A stretch of DNA of 64,000 nt from Rhizobium sp. NZLR1 (lineage in GTDB: Bacteria; Pseudomonadota; Alphaproteobacteria; Rhizobiales; Rhizobiaceae). This document shows positions 13,774-25,402 of the stretch, in pieces. The position numbers and the translations under genes are program-made. The notes beneath the pieces were generated by a model. It had not been told where the DNA came from and did not search any database. It saw only the letters and a program-made list of their open reading frames with translations. Every line of letters begins with the position of its first letter. The first letter of the stretch is position 1. The stretch lies in contig NZ_CP071633.1 of assembly GCF_017357385.1 (NCBI RefSeq), positions 849,961-913,960 of the forward strand, read 5' to 3'.

Positions 13774-13995
13774 CCGTTCTTTGCGTCGAGGAAAAGCGAT
13801 TGGGCACACAGTCGGACCTTCAGTGATTTCATGTGAAATATATTTCAGTGCGTGAATTTTATTGACAGCTCTCTATCGTTGGGATTACCTGCCCATACCG
13901 GACTTCGAGGAGGAACTCCGGTCTTCAATGGATCATCGGCAGCCGCTCAGGTGCCGCCGGATATTTGGGAGGGGCCTCGGCCTCGAGGAGGAAAC
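13774..13995. promoter_or_regulatory. Promoter/operator region of the SorC-controlled sugar operon
   Basis: Non-coding leader of 222 bases. It contains a perfect 14-base palindrome TGAAATATATTTCA at 13834-13847, flanked by further TTTCA and TGAA half-sites, forming a cluster of dyads. A TTGACA box at 13862-13867 could serve as the -35 element; no clear -10 element is seen at the expected spacing. The palindrome is a good candidate operator for the SorC-family regulator encoded within the operon (inference). Confidence 0.6.
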
Positions 13996-15024
13996 TTGCG
14001 CAGATTTCTAAGCACGACCGCATTGGCGGTCCTCGCATCGACACTATTGGCTGGCGTGGCCAGCGCAGACACGGAAAATCCGTTCCGCTGCAAGCCGGGC
14101 GAAAAATACGTCATGAATGTGATGGTCTCGGGCGTCGAATATTGGTTTCCGGTCTATGAGATGTTCAAGCAGGCCGGTCAGCAGCTCGGTTGCGAGACGG
14201 CTTATACCGGCACGCCGGAATATGACGTCAACAAGCAGATTGCCACCTTCGACCAGGCGCTGGCCCAGAACCCGGCCGGTATCCTCGTTCATCCGATGAA
14301 CTCCGACCCGTTTATCGAGCCGATCAACCGGGCTATCGATCAGGGCACGGCGGTCGTTACCTTCGCAGCCGATGCGCCGCTCTCCAAGCGCATCTCGTTC
14401 ATCACCTCGGACAATACCCGCGAAGGCACCTATGCGGCCGACGCGATCGCCGGAAAGATGGGCGGCAAGGGGGAATATGCCGTTCTGGAAAATCCGGGCC
14501 AGGATAATCATGACAAGCGTATTGCCGCCTTCATCGCCCGTATGGAGGAAAAATATCCGGAGATGAAGCTGGTCGGCCGCGCCGCGTCCAACCAGGACCC
14601 GAACAAGGCCTACCAGGGCCTGATGAGCCTGGTGCAGGCCCATCCGAACATTGGCGCCGTCTTCATGCCGGAAGCGAACTCGGCAATCGGCGCTTCGCAG
14701 GCCAACAAGGAAAGCGGCGGCAAGATCCTGGTGATGTGCGCCGACGTCAACGCCAACATCCTCGACATGATCAAGGCGGGCGAGGTGTTCGGCTCGATCA
14801 ACCCGAACCAGGGCATGCAGGGTTACATGGGCTTCATGCTGCTGTGGCTGGCCAAGCATCCGGAACTCATCGACCCGATGAACGACGCCAAGCGCGCCAG
14901 CTTCAACCCGATGAGCATTCCGTTCGTCGACAACGGCCTGTCGATCGTCACGGCTGACAATGCCGACGACTTCTACTGGGACAAGTACCTGAAGCGGCGG
15001 GGCACCAAAGGCATCGAGGAGTAA
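13996..15024 (+). CDS. Sugar ABC transporter substrate-binding protein (RbsB-like)
   Basis: 342 residues from a TTG start with GAGGAGG 4 bases upstream; the frame is open further upstream but without secretion features. A signal peptide (LRRFLSTTALAVLAS to VASA, about 24 residues) precedes a Peripla_BP_4 domain. Typical segments are AGILVHPMNSDPFIEPINRAIDQG and VFMPEANSAIGASQA. The periplasmic protein feeds the RbsA-like ATPase and permease that follow. Compared with AI-2-binding LsrB, the residues around the ligand pocket differ (GQDNHDK in place of the LsrB Asp-Gln pair), so AI-2 is unlikely. The ligand is probably a polyol or sugar. Confidence 0.9.
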   Translation: MRRFLSTTALAVLASTLLAGVASADTENPFRCKPGEKYVMNVMVSGVEYWFPVYEMFKQAGQQLGCETAYTGTPEYDVNKQIATFDQALAQNPAGILVHPMNSDPFIEPINRAIDQGTAVVTFAADAPLSKRISFITSDNTREGTYAADAIAGKMGGKGEYAVLENPGQDNHDKRIAAFIARMEEKYPEMKLVGRAASNQDPNKAYQGLMSLVQAHPNIGAVFMPEANSAIGASQANKESGGKILVMCADVNANILDMIKAGEVFGSINPNQGMQGYMGFMLLWLAKHPELIDPMNDAKRASFNPMSIPFVDNGLSIVTADNADDFYWDKYLKRRGTKGIEE

Positions 15025-23780: not shown

Positions 23781-25402
23781 ACATGCGTGTGAATGATGCC
23801 GCCATTGATGCGGGAAGCTATGATTACATCATCGTCGGCGCGGGATCGGCGGGATGTGTTCTGGCCAACCGGTTGTCGACTAATCCGAAAACCCGCGTCC
23901 TGCTGCTCGAAGCCGGCGGCAGCGACCGGTATCATTGGGTGCATGTGCCGATCGGCTATCTCTACTGCATGGGCAACCCGCGGACCGACTGGATGATGAA
24001 GACGGCAGCGGAAGCCGGACTGAACGGCCGGTCGCTACCCTATCCGCGTGGAAAGGTGCTGGGCGGCTGCTCGTCGATCAACGGCATGATCTACATGCGC
24101 GGCCAGGCGGCCGATTACGACGGCTGGCGGCAGGCGGGAAATTCCGGTTGGGGCTGGGACGACGTGCTGCCCTATTTCCTGAAATCCGAGGACAATTATC
24201 GTGGCAGGTCGCGGATGCACGGGGCAGGCGGCGAATGGCGGGTGGAAAAGCAACGGCTCTCCTGGCCGATCCTCGATGCCTTTCGCGATGCGGCCGAAGA
24301 ACTCGGCATTCCCAAAACCGACGATTTCAACGATGGGGACAATGAGGGCTCAGGCTATTTCGAGGTCAATCAGCGCGGCGGCCTGCGCTGGAACACCACC
24401 AAGGCCTTTCTGCGCCCGGCGATGAAGCGGGCCAATCTGCGGGTGCTGACCAGCGCTGAAACAGAGCGGCTGGAATTCGACGGCAGGAGGGTGACCGGCG
24501 TGCGGTTCCGGCTGAACGGGCAAACTCATCTGGCGCGCGCCGGCCGCGAGGTCATTCTGTCTGCCGGTGCGATCAATTCGCCGAAAATCCTGGAGCTCTC
24601 CGGGGTCGGCCGCCCGGATGTGTTGTCGGCTGCCGGACTTGATGTCACCCATGAACTTCCGGGTGTCGGTGAGAACCTGCAGGACCATCTGCAGATCCGT
24701 ACGGTTTTCCGCATCGAGGGCGCAAAGACGCTGAATCAGCTCTATCACAACCTGTTCACCCGGGCGGGCATGGGGCTTGAATATATGCTGCGCCGGTCCG
24801 GTCCGCTGTCTATGGCGCCCAGCCAACTCGGTATCTTTGCCAAAAGCGATCCGGCGGTTGCGACCGCCGATCTCGAATATCACGTGCAGCCCTTGAGCAC
24901 CGACCGGCTGGGCGAGCCGCTGCACACATATCCCGCCGTCACCGTTTCGGTCTGCAATCTGCGGCCGGAAAGTCGGGGCACCGTGCATGTTGGCGGCCCG
25001 GACCTTTCCGTGGCACCGGAAATCCGCCCGAATTATCTTTCGACCGTCGGCGACCGGATCGTTGCAACAAAATCGATTCGGCATGCCCGCCGGCTGATGG
25101 AGGCCGGGGCCATCGCCAAGTACCGGCCACAGGAAATGCTGCCGGGCGCGGAATACCAAAGTGACGAGGATCTGATTCGTCGCGTCGGCGATATCGCCAC
25201 CACGATCTTCCATCCGGTCGGCACCTGTAAGATGGGCAGCGACACGATGGCGGTCGTCGATTCACAATTGCGGGTGCATGGGCTGGCGAAGCTGCGGGTC
25301 GTCGATGCATCGATCATGCCGACGATCGTCTCGGGCAATACCAACTCGCCGGTGATCATGATTGCCGAGAAGGCCGCCGAGAGTATCCTGTCAGGGCAAT
25401 AG
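23777..25402 (+). CDS. GMC-family FAD oxidoreductase (choline-dehydrogenase-like)
   Basis: 541 residues. The FAD motif YIIVGAGSAGCVLANRLS, the PYPRGKVLGGCSSINGM loop, the second GMC signature near GREVILSAGAINSPKILELS, and the C-terminal catalytic FHPVGTCKMG with VSGNTNSPVIMIAEKAAE are all present. It oxidises an alcohol, perhaps the imported polyol or a sugar side product. It starts at GTG in a 4-base overlap with the kinase stop, with GGGAG 7 bases upstream. It is the last gene of the operon; no clear intrinsic terminator follows. Confidence 0.9.
   Translation: MNMRVNDAAIDAGSYDYIIVGAGSAGCVLANRLSTNPKTRVLLLEAGGSDRYHWVHVPIGYLYCMGNPRTDWMMKTAAEAGLNGRSLPYPRGKVLGGCSSINGMIYMRGQAADYDGWRQAGNSGWGWDDVLPYFLKSEDNYRGRSRMHGAGGEWRVEKQRLSWPILDAFRDAAEELGIPKTDDFNDGDNEGSGYFEVNQRGGLRWNTTKAFLRPAMKRANLRVLTSAETERLEFDGRRVTGVRFRLNGQTHLARAGREVILSAGAINSPKILELSGVGRPDVLSAAGLDVTHELPGVGENLQDHLQIRTVFRIEGAKTLNQLYHNLFTRAGMGLEYMLRRSGPLSMAPSQLGIFAKSDPAVATADLEYHVQPLSTDRLGEPLHTYPAVTVSVCNLRPESRGTVHVGGPDLSVAPEIRPNYLSTVGDRIVATKSIRHARRLMEAGAIAKYRPQEMLPGAEYQSDEDLIRRVGDIATTIFHPVGTCKMGSDTMAVVDSQLRVHGLAKLRVVDASIMPTIVSGNTNSPVIMIAEKAAESILSGQ

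What the first reader, a model, noticed from the sequence alone, without database searches (positions are those of the whole stretch)
13774..25402. Nine-gene SorC-controlled pathway for an unidentified polyol or sugar
Importer, SorC regulator, aldo/keto reductase, GlpD-like dehydrogenase, DhnA-type aldolase, LyxK-like kinase and GMC oxidoreductase are joined by overlaps into one operon. The kinase plus GlpD-like plus SorC logic recalls erythritol catabolism, while the aldolase, kinase, SorC and RbsA-type ATPase recall the lsr operon. The combination with AKR and GMC enzymes matches neither. A plausible route is oxidation, phosphorylation, second oxidation and aldol cleavage.
Basis: partly seen in the sequence, partly recalled or inferred. 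Interest (0 to 1): 0.7.

Follow-up and report, generated by a model that had tools for sequence, protein, structure and literature searches.

The report
Rhizobial operon for unknown sugar alcohol
A conserved set of root-nodule bacterial genes probably imports a sugar alcohol nobody has named, phosphorylates and oxidises it, and splits it into a glycolysis intermediate and an aldehyde, under its own operator and RNA leader.

Summary
The nine genes are real, co-directional and tightly packed (13996-25402; control region from about 13834). The same order occurs in S. meliloti pSymB, R. johnstonii pRL12 and R. etli, and in 62 of 80 returned genome loci (18 lack only GMC; one of the 62 has just a GMC fragment). 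It matches neither the erythritol nor the lsr operon. In 25 more distant loci aldolase, GlpD-like flavoenzyme and FGGY kinase stay together, while AKR (21/25) and GMC (15/25) can be missing; four loci lack both. In S. meliloti 1021 the operon is SMb20496-SMb20504 (inferred). Also found: a palindromic operator candidate (TGAA-N6-TTCA; 85 of 105 upstream regions, 0.34 after shuffling) and an operon-specific leader RNA with a covarying hairpin carrying a second Shine-Dalgarno-like sequence, without an Rfam match, complementary over six bases to published AbcR1/2 motifs. A new variant of a known kind.

The parts
13834..13847 (.). Palindrome TGAAATATATTTCA: candidate SorC operator
   Evidence: Perfect 14-bp palindrome; the TGAA-N6-TTCA family is found in 85 of 105 regions (260 bp) upstream of the SBP gene against 0.34 after single-base shuffling. 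That SorC binds it is inferred.
13853..13867 (+). TGAATTTTATTGACA: second half-site overlapping a -35-like TTGACA (13862-13867)
   Evidence: Conserved in the upstream alignment of 20 sequences; TTGAC within 26 bp 3' of the palindrome in 73 of the 85. A simple sigma-70 scan did not report it, there being no consensus -10.
13886..14004 (+). Conserved 5' leader RNA (model R1): hairpin 1 with UCGAGGAGGA in its loop, then a GGGGC/GCCUC hairpin just before the Shine-Dalgarno sequence
   Evidence: TCGAGGAGGA 25-140 bp before the start in 83 of 105 upstream regions, unselected. Helix 1: 16 cells changed on both sides vs 4.4 in shuffles (32 leaders chosen to hold that motif). One strong copy in the own genome; no Rfam match here. 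Against: single-sequence z 0.28 and no consensus fold for the unselected 90 leaders.
13996..15024 (+). Periplasmic solute-binding protein, CUT2 type (TTG start; 342 aa)
   Evidence: PF13407; nearest solved chains 6sw4, 3g1w, 7x0g.
15087..16628 (+). RbsA-type ABC ATPase
   Evidence: PF00005, two stretches.
16656..17648 (+). CUT2 permease
   Evidence: PF02653.
17650..18654 (+). SorC-family transcriptional regulator
   Evidence: PF04198; start by analogy with L003.
18651..19643 (+). Aldo/keto reductase (longer start 18645 possible)
   Evidence: PF00248; nearest solved chains GSP69 (1pz1), 3n2t, IolS.
19656..21404 (+). GlpD-like FAD-dependent (polyol-)phosphate dehydrogenase
   Evidence: PF01266+PF16901; aligned with E. 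coli GlpD 2qcu.
21377..22219 (+). Class I aldolase, LsrF/ADH-synthase-like (DeoC/LacD family)
22251..23780 (+). FGGY carbohydrate kinase
   Evidence: PF00370+PF02782; nearest solved chain AI-2 kinase LsrK 5ya0, then a xylulokinase.
23777..25402 (+). GMC-family oxidoreductase (GTG start)
   Evidence: PF00732+PF05199; nearest solved chain 8b7s; 558 bits to the choline dehydrogenase subfamily model PRK02106, below its cut-off of 605.

Best explanation
An uptake and breakdown operon for a polyol (probably C5-C7 or a deoxy-polyol, not a tetritol). The CUT2 importer brings the polyol in. The FGGY kinase phosphorylates a terminal hydroxyl. The GlpD-like flavoenzyme oxidises the hydroxyl next to the phosphate to a 2-ketose-1-phosphate, passing electrons to the quinone pool. 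The class I aldolase forms a Schiff base at Lys192 and splits the ketose-1-phosphate into DHAP (to glycolysis) and an aldehyde. AKR and GMC (with an SDR, MDR or ALDH gene nearby in some relatives) most likely dispose of that aldehyde. SorC senses a pathway intermediate and frees the palindromic operator. The leader RNA sets translation of the binding protein, perhaps through AbcR-type small RNAs. Shown: gene content, order, conservation, active-site motifs, operator and leader conservation. Inferred: every reaction, the substrate class, the order of steps, regulator binding and small-RNA control.
Against: No enzyme or binding assay, no expression data for this operon, no known substrate. The tyrosine of archaeal FBP aldolase/MJ0400 (recalled as proton donor) has no clear equivalent; LsrF also lacks it and is annotated as a thiolase, so cleavage might use CoA. 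Kinase and aldolase have LsrK and LsrF among their closest solved relatives. AKR is kept in 21 of 25 loci, high for an accessory gene, and could instead act first. The AF2 model of the binding protein was poor (pLDDT 46.6), so ligand size is unsupported; C5-C7 is chemical reasoning only.
Confidence: 0.6

Rival explanations
1. Oxidation-first route: AKR or GMC converts the imported compound before phosphorylation, or AKR reduces an imported aldose to the polyol that enters the pathway.
For: AKR is kept in 21 of 25 distant loci and in 80 of 80 close loci; AKR relatives are aldehyde or methylglyoxal reductases by annotation.
Against: L101-L103 and L121 keep transporter, SorC, kinase, GlpD-like and aldolase but lack both AKR and GMC within the stretches held.
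Confidence: 0.2
2. An AI-2/furanone-like system: LsrK-like kinase plus LsrF-like thiolase processing a signal or deoxy-sugar, with the GlpD-like enzyme making the diketone that LsrF-type enzymes cleave with CoA.
For: Nearest solved kinase is LsrK (184 bits; xylulokinase 145); aldolase matches LsrF; the regulator scores against the LsrR model (132 bits).
Against: No LsrG among the nine by Pfam; SBP 54 bits vs LsrB cut-off 384, kinase 237 vs 528, aldolase 113.5 vs 297, regulator 132 vs 486; one permease instead of LsrC+LsrD.
Confidence: 0.12
3. A second erythritol/tetritol-type operon working like eryABCD.
For: Same kinase + GlpD-like + SorC logic; a related kinase/GlpD pair lies beside the ery-type locus in R. 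johnstonii and Paracoccus.
Against: Identity to the ery-locus kinase only 28.5% and to its GlpD-like gene 29.1%; no EryC-like, TpiB or RpiB gene among the nine; aldol cleavage of a tetrulose-1-phosphate would release formaldehyde.
Confidence: 0.06

Closest known systems
Erythritol operon (eryABCD; R. johnstonii pRL12, RL_RS33945-RS33975; ery names recalled, the record gives product names only)
   Same: FGGY kinase, GlpD-like dehydrogenase, SorC regulator, CUT2 importer nearby
   Different: 28-29% identity of kinase and GlpD-like proteins; no aldolase; isomerase genes instead; no AKR or GMC
lsr operon (AI-2 uptake and processing)
   Same: CUT2 importer, SorC-family regulator, FGGY kinase, LsrF-family aldolase fold
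   Different: No LsrG, single permease, the Lsr model cut-offs missed, GlpD-like flavoenzyme added
Ery-linked second kinase/GlpD pair (L007, L109, L132), in L007 with a class II aldolase and a sugar-phosphate isomerase
   Same: Kinase 40% and GlpD-like 45% identical; kinase + GlpD + aldolase set in L007
   Different: DUF2291-type transporter, DeoR regulator in L007 and L109, class II aldolase; substrate not established here
Ketose-1-phosphate aldolase pathways (fuculose-1-P, rhamnulose-1-P, sulfohexulose-1-P; pathway roles recalled)
   Different: Those start from a ketose made by an isomerase; here the ketose-phosphate would come from a polyol-phosphate by a flavoenzyme

Membership tests
CUT2-type ABC sugar importer | Peripla_BP_4 binding protein, double-domain ATPase, BPD_transp_2 permease in one unit | tested here: met
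   order
SorC/DeoR sugar-binding regulators | PF04198 effector domain plus N-terminal HTH | tested here: met
   190 bits, cut-off 27; HTH-type matches at residues 25-67
SorC/DeoR sugar-binding regulators | Binds an operator of the operon | not testable with these tools
   Conserved palindrome only
DeoC/LacD-family class I aldolase, LsrF/ADH-synthase group | Family profile, Schiff-base lysine and the fold | tested here: met
Glycerol-3-phosphate dehydrogenase (GlpD) equivalog | Curated cut-off of the equivalog models | tested here: not met
   251 bits vs 360 and 219 vs 352: family relative, not GlpD itself
Erythritol (ery) operon | Close EryA/EryB orthologues | tested here: not met
   28.5% and 29.1% identity to the 3841 ery-locus genes
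Erythritol (ery) operon | EryC-type TIM barrel, TpiB and RpiB | tested here: not met
   None among the nine genes
lsr (AI-2) operon | LsrB, LsrK, LsrF and LsrR equivalog scores | tested here: not met
   54/384, 237/528, 113.5/297, 132/486 bits
lsr (AI-2) operon | LsrG isomerase and two permeases | tested here: not met
   Neither among the nine genes
Choline dehydrogenase (BetA) | Equivalog cut-off | tested here: not met
   474 vs 732 bits

The most novel reading that the evidence does not exclude
A polyol route not described in print: polyol kinase, FAD polyol-1-phosphate dehydrogenase and an LsrF-type class I aldolase giving DHAP plus an aldehyde, conserved across several alphaproteobacterial families. 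In its Hyphomicrobiales core it is preceded by an operon-specific structured leader RNA that carries the Shine-Dalgarno sequence twice and is a target of AbcR/NfeR-type small RNAs.
Probability: 0.35. Interest if true: 0.65.

Novelty: new variant of a known kind. Interest (0 to 1): 0.5.

Why it matters
The operon is on the S. meliloti and R. leguminosarum megaplasmids and in many soil and plant-associated bacteria, so it probably marks a nutrient common around roots that the papers searched here do not link to it. It gives a short, testable pathway (three enzymes, one binding protein), a candidate operator for a SorC regulator, and a leader RNA that makes small-RNA control of sugar uptake testable on one mRNA.

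Tried and rejected
Substrate from literature: locus-tag searches for the S. meliloti and R. leguminosarum copies and term searches for the gene set gave no substrate; of the inferred operon tags searched, only SMb20504 appeared, as an unnamed sugar-binding protein in a table. My first tag guess (SMb20896-20904) was wrong and dropped after placing the operon at about 515-527 kb of pSymB. The pRL12 tags were guessed by position and not confirmed. pRL90085 (unknown CUT2 substrate, pea rhizosphere) bears a pRL9 tag, our copy is on pRL12, so it was dropped. The FRET-sensor paper PMC3454389 (one stretch read) lists no sensor with an SMb205xx tag.

Substrate from the binding protein: AF2 model too poor, not searched further. 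Sequence relatives (arabinose-binding protein, CbpA and others) are too distant to name a ligand. The protein search with the aldolase (120 of 7979 matches listed) gave generic names, one of them 3-hydroxy-5-phosphonooxypentane-2,4-dione thiolase.

Substrate from neighbours: a survey of 2338 flanking ORFs in 110 loci found no conserved tenth gene; the largest clusters are generic ABC (22 loci), SDR (13) and permease (10) families; an ALDH lies near 5 (two within 0.3 kb of the operon). Relatives with a swapped transporter (L110, L114, L116, L117) did not reveal the substrate. Kinase relatives in Rubrobacter, Paracoccus and Klebsiella records lie in other clusters; Rhizobium sp. SL42 has the nine-gene operon.

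An arylglycerol substrate (aryl aldehyde plus DHAP) would fit the chemistry and the AKR/GMC pair, but nothing here supports it; kept only as a thought.

Leader, results against: the window leader alone is no more stable than shuffles (z 0.28); of 8 leaders tested singly only L006 was clearly more stable; RNAalifold on all 90 unselected leaders gave no structure. The case rests on covariation in leaders that I had selected for the motif, and the shuffle control does not correct for relatedness; its pairs-with-change and pair-types measures were reached by 27 and 160 of 500 shuffles.
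Full report
What is there. Nine + strand genes fill 13996-25402: CUT2 binding protein, ATPase and permease, SorC regulator, aldo/keto reductase, GlpD-like flavoenzyme, DeoC/LacD-family aldolase, FGGY kinase, GMC oxidoreductase. Three of eight junctions overlap (4, 28 and 4 bp); the others are 1-62 bp apart. A simple scan reported no more terminator-like sites than shuffles (8 vs a mean of 8.9). None of the NCBIfam models shown reached its curated cut-off with any of the nine (25 of 191 shown for the ATPase), so no curated name applies.

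Distribution. The same nine genes in the same order are annotated in R. leguminosarum WSM1325 (L003), S. meliloti pSymB (L004), R. etli IE4803 (L005), R. johnstonii 3841 pRL12 (L012) and, more distantly, Alloyangia pacifica with GMC in two pieces (L108) and Rhizobium sp. SL42 (L130). Of the 80 genome loci returned for the aldolase (the best 80 of 545 relatives, hence biased to close ones), 62 have all nine in order (L016 only 18% of GMC, L028 65% of SorC in the best segment) and 18 the first eight; of these L052 is cut off too early to judge. Sampling whole genomes, the aldolase is found in 8 of 289 of the class (E <= 1e-20), 23 of 297 of the order (E <= 1e-100) and 10 of 398 of the phylum (E <= 1e-40), own genome included each time; two of the twelve places are paralogues within the genus and one (G428) is a different cluster. 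It is in 2 of 17 of the order of G165, and the binding protein in 7 of 289 of the class and 1 of 185 of the class of G636. So the operon is patchy but crosses families; the copy outside the class (L105) has transporter, AKR and aldolase with a divergent kinase and GlpD-like gene.

S. meliloti tags. In 1021 the operon is on the minus strand at about 515-527 kb of pSymB. SMb20505 is listed as trifolitoxin immunity protein TfxG (PMC4053727, passage), which fits the 'phosphotransferase' between the AraH gene and our binding protein, and SMb20504 is listed as a periplasmic sugar-binding protein (PMC12542648, table passage). SMb20484-20488 are a predicted psicose transporter and isomerase (PMC4961836, passage), and a CUT2 transporter lies at the start of the same stretch. 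By counting, the operon is SMb20496 (GMC) to SMb20504 (SBP); this is inference, as the record has no gene table here.

What the comparison says about mechanism. I took 25 more distant loci (aldolase 66-86% identical) and counted genes at 38% identity or more on the aldolase's strand: aldolase 25, ATPase 24 (four of them a different transporter's, 38-39%), GlpD-like 24, kinase 24, SorC 23, AKR 21, SBP 20, permease 20, GMC 15 (L099 has a 43% GMC gene on the other strand, not counted). L105 has its GlpD-like gene (41%) and an FGGY kinase (31%) divergently. L101-L103 and L121 have neither AKR nor GMC. L110, L114, L116 and L117 have another CUT2-type transporter, in L110 with two permeases, and L110, L116 and L117 an extra zinc-type dehydrogenase before GMC. 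L097 and L098 have an SDR beside the operon; L006 and L062 a convergent ALDH within 0.3 kb. The stable core is therefore kinase, GlpD-like enzyme and aldolase.

Not ery, not lsr. The ery-type locus of R. johnstonii 3841 is elsewhere on the same plasmid; its kinase and GlpD-like genes are 28.5% and 29.1% identical to ours, a second kinase beside it is 40%, and the GlpD-like gene of the matching cluster in L007 45%. In L007 that pair sits with a class II aldolase and an isomerase, a parallel set. In the window's own genome the nearest match to the ery GlpD-like gene is 52% identical, on contig C5, and the nearest match to that second kinase is the window's own kinase (40%). LsrB, LsrK, LsrF and LsrR cut-offs are missed and there is no LsrG among the nine.

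Regulation. Upstream of the binding-protein gene lies TGAAATATATTTCA (13834-13847), a perfect palindrome, followed by TGAATTTTATTGACA. TGAA-N6-TTCA occurs in 85 of 105 upstream regions (0.34 expected after single-base shuffling; relatedness not corrected), and the two most frequent forms differ symmetrically (TGAAATATATTTCA 49, TGAATTATAATTCA 14), as a dimer's site would. The 20 without it include close (L004, L016) and distant loci.

Leader. 13886-14004 is a conserved leader. Without any selection, TCGAGGAGGA lies 25-140 bp before the SBP start in 83 of 105 upstream regions, none of them from the 20 distant loci; 70 of 105 have GAGGAGG twice. For structure I chose leaders by motif and length (74 of 90) and aligned 32 of them, so the invariance of UCGAGGAGGA in that alignment is by construction. 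Helix 1 pairs in 95% of cells with 16 cells changed on both sides (4.4 in shuffles); helix 2 pairs in 100%. The 74 fold together at -18.3 against -1.5 +/- 1.6 for column shuffles. Against this, all 90 leaders together gave no consensus structure and the window leader alone is no more stable than its shuffles (z 0.28). The model finds one strong copy in the own genome (114 bits; next 15.9); in 26 further stretches searched, it scores strongly in the window, S. meliloti (L011) and L122 only. Rfam has no match there. AbcR1/2 carry anti-SD motifs CUCCUCCC and UUCCCCUC (PMC8844928, passages); the leader's GAGGAG (twice) and GAGGGG could pair with six bases of each. That this happens is inference; the passages seen do not name this operon, and the term smb205 does not occur in that paper's main text.

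Verdict. Substrate unknown; every reaction is inferred.

Noticed in passing
window 13886-14004: Conserved, covarying, operon-specific leader RNA repeating the Shine-Dalgarno context in a hairpin loop; no Rfam match.
   Followed up: partly
L104 (own genome, contig C1, about 680 kb) and L107: A paralogous aldolase (51-52% identical) in a different unnamed sugar cluster with PfkB kinase, D-lyxose-isomerase-like protein and GFO/IDH/MocA oxidoreductase (L104 also ROK, GatZ-like and SDR).
   Followed up: partly
L007 3-19 kb, L109 1-8 kb, L132 4.5-12 kb: Beside rhizobial and Paracoccus ery-type loci lies a second FGGY kinase/GlpD-like pair with a DUF2291-type CUT2 transporter, in L007 with a class II aldolase and isomerase; its substrate was not established.
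   Followed up: no
L108 23.6-25.1 kb; L016 about 12.4-12.7 kb: In Alloyangia pacifica the GMC gene is annotated in two pieces, and in L016 only 18% of it is found, so it may be broken there.
   Followed up: no
window 25535-25900, - strand: Sub-threshold cspA thermoregulator match (47.8 bits, gathering score 78) downstream of the operon, where relatives have a cold-shock gene.
   Followed up: no
window 36506-44475 and 45498-53811: Two more ABC-transporter clusters: oligopeptide-type ABC genes with a DHDPS-family enzyme and an epimerase, and oligopeptide-type genes with two enolase-superfamily (MR_MLE) enzymes, possibly sugar-acid pathways.
   Followed up: no
window 10823-12160: Epoxide hydrolase-like protein (EHN + Abhydrolase_1).
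   Followed up: no
L006 17025-18569, L062 14244-15803: An aldehyde dehydrogenase gene lies convergently 145-287 bp after the operon in two Ochrobactrum/Brucella-group relatives, fitting an aldehyde product.
   Followed up: partly
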